NCBI GenBank assembly: GCA_905235475.1
Contig: CAJOLU010000003.1
Coordinates: forward strand, 40,821 to 104,820
Source of the DNA: an uncultured Clostridia bacterium
Lineage (GTDB): Bacteria > Bacillota > Clostridia > Christensenellales > UBA1242
Direction: 5' to 3'
Length of the DNA: 64,000 nucleotides
Shown piece after piece: positions 10,298 to 49,071 of the stretch (position 1 is its first letter; each line of letters begins with the position of its first letter). The notes beneath the pieces were generated by a model. The model saw only the letters and a list, made by a program, of their open reading frames with translations, made no database searches and was not told the origin of the DNA. A program made the translations under genes and the position numbers.

Positions 10298-10316
10298 TTG
10301 GATACTAAATTAATAA

Positions 10317-10400
10317 GTCTTCGCCAAAGACAGTAAGTGCTTGGTTTCAAGTATAATCTCGCAAGGGGCTTACCGAGGTAAAGCAAAATATGGATATTCT
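10317..10400 (+). ncRNA. Ribosomal protein L10 leader
   Basis: A structured 5' leader with the conserved AAAGACAGTAAGTG segment, a variable arm and GGGGCTTACCGAGGTAAA, the consensus core of the L10 leader that binds the L10(L12)4 complex for autoregulation. It sits between a consensus promoter and rplJ. Confidence 0.88.
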
Positions 10401-10404
10401 CTCT

Positions 10405-10445
10405 ATCCTTGTGCTTTACTCTTTGCACAAGGATTTATTTTTTTA
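10405..10445 (+). terminator. Attenuator terminator of the L10 leader
   Basis: Ten-pair stem ATCCTTGTGC (10405-10414) / GCACAAGGAT (10425-10434) followed by TTATTTTTTT, placed between the L10-binding leader and rplJ. It fits premature termination when L10 is in excess. Confidence 0.85.
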
Positions 10446-10474
10446 GAAAACACATAAGGAGGGTTCCAATCGAG

Positions 10475-22447: not shown

Positions 22448-22716
22448 GACTGTGCGGTCATTTCGAAAAACCTTAACAGAGCAGTAATCTTTTTAAAAGC
22501 TCCCAAGAGGCTACCTTATGGCACATCACAAACAACCTCTTAATGCTGCTGCCTTCCGGCTCTGACATGGTTCAAAGCGCGTGATTGCACAAGACCTTTT
22601 GCTCAACACCCTTAAAAAGCACTTACGCTATTAAAAATTCCCCTAGATGACTGGTCAGCCCCGCTGTAGTGGATTGCGAGTAACAGGGCACCACTAGCTC
22701 CCCGCTTAGCACAGTC
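22448..22716 (-). ncRNA. ffs: Large signal recognition particle RNA (scRNA)
   Basis: About 269 nt on the minus strand. The 5' end GACTGTGC (22716-22709 side) pairs with the 3' end GCACAGTC (22455-22448), closing the long rod. The apical domain IV contains the Ffh-binding AGCCGGAAGGCAGCAGC, and the Alu-type 5' domain carries GGGGAGCTAGTGGTGCCC. This is the ~270-nt Bacillus/Clostridium class rather than the short 4.5S type. A T-run immediately follows the 3' end on the minus strand, acting as terminator. It fills the 490-nt gap between glmS and the CBS gene. Confidence 0.92.
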
Positions 22717-46092: not shown

Positions 46093-46113
46093 GTAATCGT
46101 GTTTCAATATTAT

Positions 46114-46212
46114 GCTGATGTGGCTCAGTTGGCGATGAGCGTTTCAAAAAACTTGCCAGTGGCAAGTTTTTAGCGAAGAGAGCGAGCAGTTTGTAACTGC
46201 CGCTGGAAGACC
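46114..46212 (+). other. Disrupted tRNA-like copy 1 with two-hairpin insert
   Basis: Begins with GCTGATGTGGCTCAGTTGG (46114-46132), one base different from the first 19 nt of the tRNA-Thr at 46280. Where the D-loop would continue comes an insert with hairpin 1, ACTTGCC-AGT-GGCAAGT flanked by A/T runs (46146-46171), and hairpin 2, AGCG-a-GCAGTT-tgt-AACTGC-CGCT (46181-46204), then GGAAGACC. No 3' tRNA half follows. It lies inside a unit with its own promoter and terminator. Confidence 0.65.
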
Positions 46213-46279
46213 TTGGGGCTACCTAAAACATAAAAGTTAAACTTACTAGAAAACATATTGTATACACAAAAAGATATAT

Positions 46280-46355
46280 GCTGATGTGGCTCAGGTGGTA
46301 GAGCAATTGATTCGTAATCAATAGGTCAGGGGTTCGAATCCCCTCATCAGCTCCA
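46280..46355 (+). tRNA. tRNA-Thr (anticodon CGU)
   Basis: 76 nt with encoded CCA. Acceptor GCTGATG / CATCAGC, D-arm GGCTCAGGTGGTAGAGC, anticodon stem ATTGA/TCAAT with CGT in the loop TTCGTAA, T-arm GGGGTTCGAATCCCC. All arms pair. Confidence 0.93.
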
Positions 46356-46384
46356 TTCGTGTAACATAAGTTGTGCTCTAACAA

Positions 46385-46528
46385 CGGGCTCAGTTGGCGC
46401 GACGCGTTAAGAAAACTTGCCAGTGGCAAGTTTTTAGCCAAAGCGGACACCACTTTATGTGGTGGCGGAAGAGCAGCGCGCTCATGAATAGCGCAGGTCA
46501 GGGGCTTAAAATCCCCTCATCAGCTCCA
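46385..46528 (+). other. Disrupted tRNA-like copy 2 with related two-hairpin insert
   Basis: Starts GGGCTCAGTTGGCG without a matching 5' acceptor. The insert has the same hairpin 1 (ACTTGCC-AGT-GGCAAGT, 46412-46434) and a hairpin 2 at the same place but with a different stem (CACCAC-tttat-GTGGTG within CG...CG, 46444-46467). Then GGAAGAGCA leads into a tRNA 3' half: GCGCGCTCATGAATAGCGC (odd 9-nt loop), GGTCAGGGG, a damaged T-loop, and CCCCTCATCAGCTCCA identical to the end of tRNA-Thr. Not a functional tRNA as it stands. Confidence 0.65.
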
Positions 46529-46530
46529 AT

Positions 46531-46565
46531 AAACACTTTGTCATAATGCAAAGTGTTTTTTTGTA
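46531..46565 (+). terminator. Terminator of the tRNA-Thr unit
   Basis: AAACACTTTG / CAAAGTGTTT stem followed by a T-run. Confidence 0.85.
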
Positions 46566-46620: not shown

Positions 46621-49071
46621 ATGATAGATAAAATTGAAGTGCGTGGAGCAAGAGTTCACAACTTAAAAAATATTAATGTTGACATTCCATTAAACAAAAT
46701 TGTTGGAATTTCGGGTGTTTCTGGAAGTGGTAAGTCTTCTTTGGCACTTGGTGTTTTGTATGCAGAAGGTTCAAGAAGATATTTGGAGGCACTTTCAACC
46801 TACACAAGACGAAGAATTACCCAAAGTGAGAAAGCCAAAGTTGATTCTGTGTTGCATGTGCCATCAAGTTTGGCACTTCATCAAAGACCAAATGTGCCAA
46901 GCATACGCTCAACTTTTGGAACAGCAACTGAACTTTTGAACTCATTAAGACTAATGTTTTCGCGTTGTGGTAACTATATTTGCCCTAATGGTCATATTTG
47001 TAAGGCTTCTGCACAAGTTGCTAGGGAGCAAGATATTGAGTGTGACGTGTGTCATGTGAAGTTTCGTGGGTTGGGTGCTGAAGATTATGCTTTTAATTCG
47101 CGTGGTGCGTGCCCTGTTTGTCAGGGAACTGGGATTGTTCAAACAGTTGATATGGACTCTCTTGTTCCAAACCAAAATTTGAGCATTGATGATGGCGCTG
47201 TGGCACCTTGGAACTCGCTTATGTGGTCACTTATGGTTGATGTTTGCCGTGCGATGGGTGTTAGAACTGATATTCCATTTAAGGATTTAACTGATGAGGA
47301 AAAGCAAATTGTATATGATGGTCCAATGGTTAAAAAACGAATTTTCTATAAGTCAAAAAACGAAGATAGTGTGAACGCTGGTGAACTGAATTTCACATAT
47401 TATAGTGCCAAAGCCACAGTTTTGAATGCTTTAAAGAAAGTTAAAGATGAAAAGAGTATGGCTCGTGTTGCCAAATTTTTGAAAGAAGAAAAGTGCGAGG
47501 AATGTGGAGGATCAAGGCTAAACAAGAGGGCTAATTCCACACTTTTGGGTGGAAAAACATTATATGAAACAACGCAAATGAGTTTGCTTGAATTATATAA
47601 ATGGTTGCCAGAGGTGGTTGAAAATCTAGACAGCCAAGTAAAAGAAATGGGGCAAAATATTTTGGAAGAATTTATGGTTGATGCAAAAGCGCTACTATCT
47701 TTGGGGCTTGGTTATTTAACACTTGATAGAGCATCTAACACTCTTTCAACTGGAGAACTTCAAAGGGTGCAACTTGCAAGAACTGTGAAAAACAGGACAA
47801 CTGGTGTTTTGTATGTTTTAGATGAGCCTTCAATTGGGCTTCATCCAAATAATGTTGATGGTTTAATTGATGTTATGCATAAACTGGTTGAAGATGGAAA
47901 CTCAATTGTTTTGGTGGACCACGACACAAATATTTTAAAAGTTTGCGACCACATTATTGAAATTGGGCCAAAAGCAGGTAAAAATGGTGGTAACATTATT
48001 TTTGAAGGAACAGTGAAAGAATGTGAAAAGAGTGAAAAGTCTGTTATTGGGAAATATTTAGCAGAGAAAGAACAAATAAAAGTAATTGAAAACTCTAAAA
48101 ATGTTTTTGACAAGGGTCAAATCACATTAGAAATGGACAAAATTCACACCTTAAAACCAATGAAAGTAAGTTTTCCAAAAAATAAGATGACAGTTGTTAC
48201 TGGTGTTTCAGGAAGTGGAAAAACAACACTTGTTTTGGAGTCACTTTGCCCAGCAATTATGGCAAGTTTGCATAAAGAAAAAAAGCCAGAGCACATAAAA
48301 AGCATAGATGCTTCTGGAATTAAAAAAGTAAATTTAATTGATGCCACGCCAATTGGCAGTAATGTTCGAAGCACCGTTGCAACTTATTCTGGAGTTTTAG
48401 ATGATTTAAGAAAGTTGTATGCAAGTTTAAGTCACAAATATAAGAATAGTGATTTTTCATATAACACTGGGAAATTAAAGTGTAAAACTTGTGATGGAAC
48501 TGGAATTATTTCTATGGATATTCAGTTCTTGCCAGACCTTGAACTTGTTTGTGATGATTGTGATGGACTTAGATATTCAAAAGAAGTTGAATCTGTTTTA
48601 TATAACAACAAGTCCATAAAAGATGTTATGGCACTAACTATTGATGAAGCAATTAAGTTCTTTGAAAAAGAAAGTAAAATTAAGAGCAAGCTTGAAGTTT
48701 TGTCTGAATTGGGGATTGGGTATTTGACTTTGGGAGAAAGCACGCCGGCACTTTCTGGTGGAGAGGCACAAAGGCTAAAACTTGCGTCAGAAATTGATAA
48801 ACTTCAAAATGATGCTTTGTTTGTGTTTGATGAGCCAAGTGTAGGGCTCCATCCAGATGATGTTAAAAATCTTTTAAAAGTGTTTAAGAAATTGATGAAA
48901 AACGGGGCAACAATCATTGTTATTGAACATGATTTAGATATTATTAAGAACGCAAATTATATTATTGATATGGGGCCACTTGGTGGTGAAATGGGTGGAG
49001 AAATAGTGGCAGCAGGCTCTGTGGAAGATATTAAAAATTGCAAGAAAAGTTTAACTGGCAAATATTTATAA
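46621..49071 (+). CDS. UvrA2-like excinuclease ABC ATPase
   Basis: 816 residues from the ATG at 46621 (AAAGGAG site). Two ABC ATPase halves: Walker A GVSGSGKSSL (about 35-44) and GVSGSGKTTL, signatures STGELQRVQLART and SGGEAQRLKLASE, Walker B VLDEPSIGL and VFDEPSVGL. Zinc modules (CPNGH..C, CDVC, CPVCQGTG, CKTCDGTG...CDDCDG) are present. At 816 residues it is about 120 shorter than canonical UvrA (about 940), as in class II UvrA2 proteins that lack the UvrB-binding region and are tied to DNA-damage or drug tolerance rather than core repair. No uvrB is adjacent. Confidence 0.85.
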   Translation: MIDKIEVRGARVHNLKNINVDIPLNKIVGISGVSGSGKSSLALGVLYAEGSRRYLEALSTYTRRRITQSEKAKVDSVLHVPSSLALHQRPNVPSIRSTFGTATELLNSLRLMFSRCGNYICPNGHICKASAQVAREQDIECDVCHVKFRGLGAEDYAFNSRGACPVCQGTGIVQTVDMDSLVPNQNLSIDDGAVAPWNSLMWSLMVDVCRAMGVRTDIPFKDLTDEEKQIVYDGPMVKKRIFYKSKNEDSVNAGELNFTYYSAKATVLNALKKVKDEKSMARVAKFLKEEKCEECGGSRLNKRANSTLLGGKTLYETTQMSLLELYKWLPEVVENLDSQVKEMGQNILEEFMVDAKALLSLGLGYLTLDRASNTLSTGELQRVQLARTVKNRTTGVLYVLDEPSIGLHPNNVDGLIDVMHKLVEDGNSIVLVDHDTNILKVCDHIIEIGPKAGKNGGNIIFEGTVKECEKSEKSVIGKYLAEKEQIKVIENSKNVFDKGQITLEMDKIHTLKPMKVSFPKNKMTVVTGVSGSGKTTLVLESLCPAIMASLHKEKKPEHIKSIDASGIKKVNLIDATPIGSNVRSTVATYSGVLDDLRKLYASLSHKYKNSDFSYNTGKLKCKTCDGTGIISMDIQFLPDLELVCDDCDGLRYSKEVESVLYNNKSIKDVMALTIDEAIKFFEKESKIKSKLEVLSELGIGYLTLGESTPALSGGEAQRLKLASEIDKLQNDALFVFDEPSVGLHPDDVKNLLKVFKKLMKNGATIIVIEHDLDIIKNANYIIDMGPLGGEMGGEIVAAGSVEDIKNCKKSLTGKYL

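What the first reader, a model, noticed from the sequence alone, without database searches (positions are those of the whole stretch)
46114..46528. tRNA-Thr flanked by two disrupted tRNA-like copies carrying a shared two-hairpin insert
Copy 1 has an intact tRNA 5' end (GCTGATGTGGCTCAGTTGG) and copy 2 an intact 3' end (CATCAGCTCCA), and both are interrupted at the D-loop by a ~70-nt insert. The first hairpin (ACTTGCC-AGT-GGCAAGT) is identical in the two; the second keeps its place and length but has different paired bases (GCAGTT/AACTGC versus CACCAC/GTGGTG), which is a covariation signature of a selected RNA structure. The trio sits between one promoter (46064) and one terminator (46531). It could be a mobile hairpin element that targets tRNA D-loops, an unknown structured RNA derived from tRNA, or an old tRNA array broken by insertions.
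Basis: partly seen in the sequence, partly recalled or inferred. Interest (0 to 1): 0.75.

Follow-up and report, generated by a model that had tools for sequence, protein, structure and literature searches.

The report
Hairpin repeat that invades tRNA genes
A short DNA repeat made of two hairpins has inserted on both sides of a tRNA gene here and beside many tRNA genes in related gut bacteria, usually leaving a broken piece of the tRNA next to an intact copy; what moves it is unknown.

Summary
tRNA-Thr(CGT) at 46280-46355 is flanked by two tRNA-Thr fragments, each interrupted at the D-loop by a ~75-nt two-hairpin insert, E. E is a family: a covariance model matches in 74 of 118 genomes of the window's family (E<=0.01), 83 of 297 of the order (1e-4) and 30 of 391 of the class (1e-5). 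Of 128 distinct copies, 94 lie within 500 bp of a tRNA. Of 46 copies whose break could be placed in the intact neighbour, 17 are in the D-loop and 15 in the T-arm on the other strand; GG precedes 38 of 46 breaks. One end of the tRNA is repeated, an intact tRNA stays beside it, and a short inverted copy of the broken arm often lies between. The two breakpoint copies are typically about 165 bp apart. Hairpin arms covary strongly. In another family 13 copies sit in a palindromic repeat, not at tRNAs. Best reading: a non-autonomous palindromic mobile repeat entering hairpin-encoding DNA, akin to YPAL/REP repeats but with tRNA-arm targeting I did not find described. Mover unknown; RNA function not shown.

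The parts
46111..46132 (+). repeat of the tRNA-Thr 5' end (tRNA positions 1-19 plus 3 upstream bases); matches 46277-46298 at 21 of 22
46133..46204 (+). E1, the first double-hairpin insert
   Evidence: R1 match, 72.7 bits as G000:C3:86955-87028
46147..46171 (+). hairpin 1 of E1: AAAAACTTGCC-AGT-GGCAAGTTTTT
46181..46204 (+). hairpin 2 of E1 (GCAGTT-TGT-AACTGC with outer AGCG/CGCT)
46205..46223 (+). segment R after E1 (GGAAGACCTTGGGGCTACC); CTACC is antisense to the D-loop GGTAG, 5 nt, not above its control of 4.9
46280..46355 (+). intact tRNA-Thr, anticodon CGT
46373..46397 (+). left flank of E2: a stretch antisense to the tRNA D-arm (TGCTCTA exact, 7 nt) followed by a sense D-arm piece GGCTCAGTTGG (46387-46397)
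46398..46470 (+). E2, the second double-hairpin insert
   Evidence: R1 match, 98.4 bits as G000:C3:87219-87290
46411..46435 (+). hairpin 1 of E2
46448..46464 (+). hairpin 2 of E2 (CACCAC-TTTAT-GTGGTG)
46471..46528 (+). repeat of the tRNA-Thr 3' half, degenerate in the anticodon arm and T-loop; its last 16 nt are identical to the intact tRNA
46531..46558 (+). terminator-like hairpin with T run
   Evidence: consensus scan

Best explanation
E is a non-autonomous palindromic mobile DNA repeat of about 75 nt: two hairpins with conserved unpaired motifs around them (GAC before and CAAA after hairpin 1 in most copies). It inserts right after a GG(G) in DNA that encodes a stem-loop, in this family mostly arms of tRNA genes. 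Read directly from sequence: a few recurrent break points in tRNA arms; one end of the tRNA repeated on one side of E; an intact tRNA next to it; often a short inverted copy of the broken arm between E and the intact tRNA; a typical distance of about 165 bp between the two copies of the breakpoint. Inferred: E acts as folded single-stranded DNA or at a stalled fork; breakage and strand switching on the target hairpin duplicate one flank and copy a few bases of the arm back to front; recombination between the direct repeats later makes tandem arrays or removes the insert cleanly. In the window one insertion repeated the 5' part of tRNA-Thr (E1) and a second the 3' part (E2).
For: Family of copies at many different tRNAs: 94 of 128 distinct copies within 500 bp of an ARAGORN tRNA, 18 too close to a contig end to tell, 16 far, although tRNA genes are sparse (33 matches in about 1.1 Mb in G002). 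Recurrent breaks: 17 of 46 in the D-loop, 15 of 46 in the T-arm on the minus strand, 14 elsewhere; GG before 38 of 46 breaks against 8.3% of positions in the same tRNAs. Distance between breakpoint copies: median 169 for 46, 39 of 46 within 140-195; D-loop group alone 165.2 +/- 10.8, n=17. Inverted arm: longest antisense match to the own target 8.5 nt on average against 5.3 for targets of other tRNAs, n=48 rows including two repeated records. Mirror form: in 17 of 30 copies with an intact tRNA upstream, the tRNA end is repeated downstream of E. Empty site: the Thr locus beside the same ABC transporter gene is occupied in G000 and G002 and empty in G001. Covariation. Same break rule outside tRNAs: after AAAGGG in a palindromic repeat in G353, 14 occupied and 45 empty copies in the fetched stretches.
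Against: No movement was observed and no mover found: RVT_1 and Y1_Tnp are absent from G000 and G002, as is PF02371. The window's own E1 has an antisense match no better than control (5 against 4.9). 7 of 46 distances lie outside 140-195. 16 copies are not near a tRNA. In G353 E may have spread with its host repeat. G001 is closer to G000 than G002 is (one gene), so the empty site there may be a loss. Up to three bases at the break may belong to E itself, which favours finding G's there.
Confidence: 0.75

Rival explanations
1. E is a functional structured RNA transcribed from the tRNA promoter; the tRNA 5' piece is its leader and the antisense segment pairs with the neighbouring tRNA or its precursor to regulate it.
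For: Strong covariation; in clean helices 10 G.T and no A.C pairs, as if one strand folds; in the D-loop group E lies downstream of the tRNA 5' end in the sense direction; antisense stretches of up to 17 nt match the own tRNA.
Against: In the T-arm group E is antisense to the tRNA, so the tRNA promoter cannot make the same strand there. Helices are nearly all Watson-Crick (854 of 864), whereas tRNA stems from the same loci hold about 4-5% G.T (14 of 355 and 32 of 658 pairs). No Rfam family fits. Window E1 keeps almost no antisense. Copies in G353 are not at tRNAs.
Confidence: 0.12
2. There is no mobile element: hairpins at tRNA genes arise again and again by replication slippage, template switching and tandem duplication, and compensatory changes come from palindrome correction.
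For: The inverted arm copies look like template-switch scars; helices are almost perfectly Watson-Crick; tandem arrays are common.
Against: A shared core (mostly GCGACGCGTTAA before and AGCCAAAGC after hairpin 1) recurs in many genera and families at unrelated sites, which local slippage would not spread.
Confidence: 0.07
3. E is a miniature derivative of a reverse-transcriptase, Y1 (IS200/RAYT) or IS110-type element whose enzyme acts in trans.
For: RAYT-type enzymes move hairpin repeats (abstract of PMC3733652). RVT_1 in 28 of 118 and Y1_Tnp in 21 of 118 family genomes.
Against: None of the three is found in G000 or G002, which hold several copies. Of 40 RT or Y1 loci searched with R1, one gave a match, at E=0.06. 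PF02371 in 2 of 20 genomes; Y1 in 3 of 10 E-bearing genomes outside the family, 2 over the cut-off. An enzyme since lost cannot be excluded.
Confidence: 0.06

Closest known systems
YPAL / RU-2 repeat of Yersinia (passages of PMC2229807)
   Same: Short repeat without a gene, inverted repeats internal, target duplications of variable size (3-26 bp), targets that span or adjoin dyad symmetry.
   Different: About 168 bp and from Yersinia; tRNA-arm targeting and an inverted copy of the target are not mentioned in the passages I saw. I did not compare the sequences.
REP repeats, GTAG and CGTC types (abstract and passages of PMC3733652)
   Same: Small palindromes with unpaired motifs; some sit inside other palindromes; the CGTC type has no known transposase.
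   Different: E has two hairpins, a 10-11-pair stem with a 3-nt loop and usually a central G.G, GAC/CAAA instead of the CGTC and CCA tags, and tRNA genes as main sites.
Double-hairpin and repetitive hairpin elements of mitochondrial DNA (listing; passages of PMC2800124)
   Same: Repeats built of one or two hairpins that spread through a genome by an unknown process.
   Different: Sponge elements are described with conserved stems and changing loops; in E the stems change with compensation. Organelle genomes.
Rickettsia palindromic elements (passages of PMC2229807)
   Same: Palindromes that can lie in reading frames; one E copy lies in frame in a P-type ATPase gene (L179).
   Different: Main sites of E are tRNA genes.
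Integrative islands and prophages at tRNA genes (recalled, no call)
   Same: tRNA arm as target, intact tRNA kept through a duplicated piece.
   Different: Those are kilobases long and carry an integrase; E is about 75 nt with no gene.

Membership tests
Small non-autonomous palindromic mobile repeats of bacteria (broad sense of PMC2229807) | under 200 bp, no protein encoded, many dispersed copies | tested here: met
   about 75 nt; copies in many genomes and at many sites
Small non-autonomous palindromic mobile repeats of bacteria (broad sense of PMC2229807) | target site duplication | tested here: met
   repeated tRNA end of 7-76 nt (33 cases chosen as distance 140-195 and repeat <=80)
Small non-autonomous palindromic mobile repeats of bacteria (broad sense of PMC2229807) | actual movement | tested here: inconclusive
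   occupied and empty orthologous Thr locus, but loss is possible
YPAL/RU-2 | targets at dyad symmetry with variable duplications | tested here: met
   breaks in tRNA arms and palindromes
YPAL/RU-2 | sequence similarity to YPAL | not tested
   no YPAL sequence was fetched
CGTC-type REP | unpaired CGTC tag, 8-9 bp stem, 4-5 nt loop, CCA tail (as told in PMC3733652) | tested here: not met
   GAC and CAAA around a 10-11-pair stem with a 3-nt loop
GTAG-type REP with RAYT | Y1 transposase in genomes that carry the repeat | tested here: not met
   Y1 absent from G000 and G002; 21 of 118 in the family, 3 of 10 elsewhere
IS110/bridge-RNA type element | IS110 transposase domain PF02371 | tested here: not met
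   2 of 20 E-bearing genomes
Functional tRNA | cloverleaf found by ARAGORN or Rfam in copies 1 and 2 | tested here: not met
   only the middle gene is called
Functional non-coding RNA | discrete transcript | not testable with these tools
   no expression data

The most novel reading that the evidence does not exclude
E shows a distinct way of inserting DNA: it picks hairpin-encoding arms of tRNA genes after GG(G), makes a partial duplication of near-constant length (about 165 bp from breakpoint to breakpoint) that leaves a working tRNA, and copies some of the broken arm back to front, without an enzyme of the three transposition families tested being needed in the same genome.
Probability: 0.3. 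Interest if true: 0.82.

Novelty: new variant of a known kind. Interest (0 to 1): 0.62.

Why it matters
tRNA genes are classic docking sites of large islands. Here a repeat with no gene uses several tRNA arms, on either strand, and an intact tRNA stays beside it. The recurrent break points, the near-constant length and the inverted arm copy are concrete marks of an insertion process that can be tested. It also explains pseudo-tRNAs, and at least one false tRNA call (L163), in genomes of uncultured Clostridia.

Tried and rejected
Mover: RVT_1 in 28 of 118 family genomes, Y1_Tnp in 21 of 118, 20 over the cut-off, PF02371 in 2 of 20 chosen genomes; none in G000 or G002. Y1 in 3 of 10 E-bearing genomes outside the family, 2 over the cut-off. 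R1 on 40 RT and Y1 loci: one match, E=0.06. I drew no formal correlation.

Autonomous version between two E copies: L170 and L179 looked possible. The L179 gene is a cation ATPase by Pfam; the two longest frames between the L170 pairs match nothing in Pfam. Not settled for L170.

Viral contigs: 3 stretches held the 18-base hairpin pattern; R1 matched one of them, over hairpin 1 only. Not counted as E.

Trans-spliced split tRNA: hairpin 2 of the two window copies cannot pair with each other (reading). Assembly chimera: same arrangement in G002.

G.T against A.C as a strand test, every version: strict finder, hairpin 2 only, 2 against 0; permissive finder 122 against 72, mostly false helices; loose finder 26 against 6 for hairpins 1 and 2 together, with tRNA arm regions 24:18 and 57:24 in the same finder; finder that admits only clean helices 10 against 0, p=0.002. 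The copies are related, so this is weak support.

Rows dropped: searches gave 86 and 67 matches. I tabulated 131 copies (12 of them from the window, L009 and genus loci found earlier), leaving out records fetched twice and partial matches; one search then dropped three as identical, of which one (L176) is a true tandem copy. The 94 near copies carry 30 ARAGORN labels, one of which (Ala-GGC at L163) is a false call over E itself; an intact tRNA-Thr does lie beside that copy, so 29 labels stand. The break finder was run on 127 copies and placed 46 in a neighbouring tRNA; for the others the best match was another E copy, non-tRNA sequence or nothing usable. The figure 167.6 +/- 10.5 is for 33 cases already limited to 140-195; unlimited, the 46 give mean 182.7, sd 45.0, median 169.

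Literature: search listings; passages of PMC2229807 and PMC2800124; abstract and passages of PMC3733652. None that I saw describes a clostridial tRNA-arm repeat; this covers the held open-access library and those terms only.

Full report
What is in the window. tRNA-Thr(CGT) lies at 46280-46355. Upstream lies a copy of its first 19 nt (46114-46132) that runs straight into a two-hairpin insert, E1. Downstream lies a second insert, E2 (46398-46470), between a D-arm piece and a tRNA-like 3' half that ends at 46528. Both inserts hold the same first hairpin and a second hairpin with different paired bases.

It is a family. A DNA search of the window's genome found two more copies, in tandem with a 161-bp period, before tRNA-Lys(CTT) just outside the window. 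In the genus 6 of 9 genomes matched the query; two of the six (G001, G003) matched only its tRNA piece. A covariance model from 8 copies matches in 74 of 118 family genomes at E<=0.01, 83 of 297 of the order at 1e-4 and 30 of 391 of the class at 1e-5. The draws overlap and include training copies. An exact 22-base pattern occurs in 32 stretches of named records, mostly titled Clostridia or Clostridiales bacterium or Christensenella; one is the complete genome of Oscillospiraceae bacterium CE91-St43, where E lies in a palindromic repeat.

It sits at tRNA genes. Of 128 distinct copies, 85 have an ARAGORN tRNA within 300 bp and 9 more within 500; 18 are too near a contig end to tell and 16 are far. 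The labels of the 94 cover 29 isotype/anticodon classes after one false call is set aside. tRNA genes are sparse, for example 33 matches in about 1.1 Mb in G002.

Where it breaks the tRNA. The break could be placed in the intact neighbour for 46 of the 127 copies tried: 17 in the D-loop, 15 in the T-arm on the minus strand, 14 elsewhere, among them anticodon and variable-loop positions. The two bases before it are GG in 38 of 46, against 8.3% of positions in the same tRNAs. Up to three bases may be shared with the start of E, which favours G's.

What the insertion leaves. On one side E carries a repeat of the tRNA end with some flank. The distance between the two copies of the breakpoint has median 169 for the 46 and lies within 140-195 in 39; seven are longer, two of them across a second E or a wider gap. 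In the D-loop group it is 165.2 +/- 10.8, n=17. The recognisable repeat varies far more (7-76 nt, mean 30.2, sd 16.4, in 33 cases limited to distance 140-195 and repeat <=80; correlation with distance 0.24). I read this as a duplication of near-fixed length of which mostly the tRNA part has stayed identical. That is an inference.

The inverted arm. Segment R between E and the intact tRNA often holds target sequence forward and then reversed. The longest antisense match to the own target averages 8.5 nt, against 5.3 for targets of other tRNAs; 26 of 48 rows reach 8 or more (two repeated records among the 48). The window's E1 has 5 nt, no better than its control of 4.9.

A mirror form exists. 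In 30 copies an intact tRNA lies upstream within 300 bp; in 17 its end is repeated downstream of E, and the left flank holds antisense stretches of up to 14 nt (no control was run for this side). Window E2 is of this form, with 7 nt. So the trio is one intact tRNA-Thr with one insertion on each side.

Structure. On 73 distinct rows of 86 matches, 89.2% of cells pair, 18 of 19 pairs have a change on both sides, and none of 500 shuffles reaches any of the five measures; slid controls pair 59.8% at most. The alignment is fitted to the model and holds a few partial rows, so it leans towards the structure. One pair of hairpin 1 is unpaired in 58 of 73 rows, usually G opposite G. Among clean helices 854 of 864 pairs are Watson-Crick, 10 G.T, none A.C. 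Such near-perfect palindromes suit a DNA hairpin; the bias hints that one strand folds.

Mobility. The Thr locus beside the same ABC transporter gene is occupied in G000 and G002 and empty in G001; the Thr sites of G003 and G007 are empty too, but their flanks gave no match to that gene. G001 is closer to G000 than G002 is (77% against 66% identity in that one protein), so loss through the direct repeats is a simple account. In G353, of another family, 13 copies (12 identical over the 70 nt printed, one with a single change) sit after AAAGGG in a palindromic repeat that has 14 occupied and 45 empty copies in the fetched stretches; no tRNA is called in those loci. There E may have spread with its host repeat.

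Mover. RVT_1 28 of 118, Y1_Tnp 21 of 118 family genomes, PF02371 2 of 20 chosen genomes; none in G000 or G002. A lost or host enzyme remains possible.

Known relatives. From passages read, YPAL of Yersinia shares internal inverted repeats, variable target duplications and targets with dyad symmetry; REP repeats can lie inside palindromes and the CGTC type has no known transposase; mitochondrial hairpin elements are alike in build. E does not meet the CGTC features and was not compared with YPAL in sequence. I file it as a new variant of small palindromic mobile repeats.

Limits. Most genomes here appear to be metagenome assemblies, so contig ends cut many repeats. Copies are related, so counts are not independent events. 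There are no expression or movement data.

Noticed in passing
L179 1040-1150 (G035:C1): An E copy lies inside an open frame of 923 aa that Pfam calls a cation-transporting P-type ATPase; here hairpin 1 has a different stem while its flanking motifs are kept.
   Followed up: partly
L170 1056-1232 and 2848-3024 (G110:C12): Two pairs of E copies in opposite orientation, 1.8 kb apart and nearly identical; the two frames between them match no Pfam family.
   Followed up: partly
L190-L200 (G353): E sits in an abundant modular palindromic repeat that itself occurs in tandem; that host repeat was not studied.
   Followed up: partly
many T-arm copies, e.g. L171, L181, L087: An extra hairpin with loop GACA (TCCGACAGGA) lies between hairpin 2 and the inverted arm; it looks like a mark of a subfamily.
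   Followed up: no
window 46471-46528: The 3' half after E2 has lost tRNA-Thr identity (changed anticodon arm, T-loop CTTAAAA) yet keeps paired stems; in G002 the same half keeps its T-loop.
   Followed up: no
L163 1088-1187 (G109:C1): ARAGORN calls a false tRNA-Ala over an E copy inserted in a tRNA-Thr copy; such calls may be in public annotations.
   Followed up: yes
L102 and L130 (G078): Reverse transcriptase domains in open frames of 1243 and 1286 aa, unusually long; no E nearby.
   Followed up: no
window 46621-49071: A short UvrA-type ATPase frame (UvrA_DNA-bind by Pfam) follows the unit; no match to it in the compared stretches of G001 and G002.
   Followed up: partly
window 10306-10448 and 22450-22714: Rfam matches to an L10 leader (+) and a large bacterial SRP RNA (-).
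   Followed up: no
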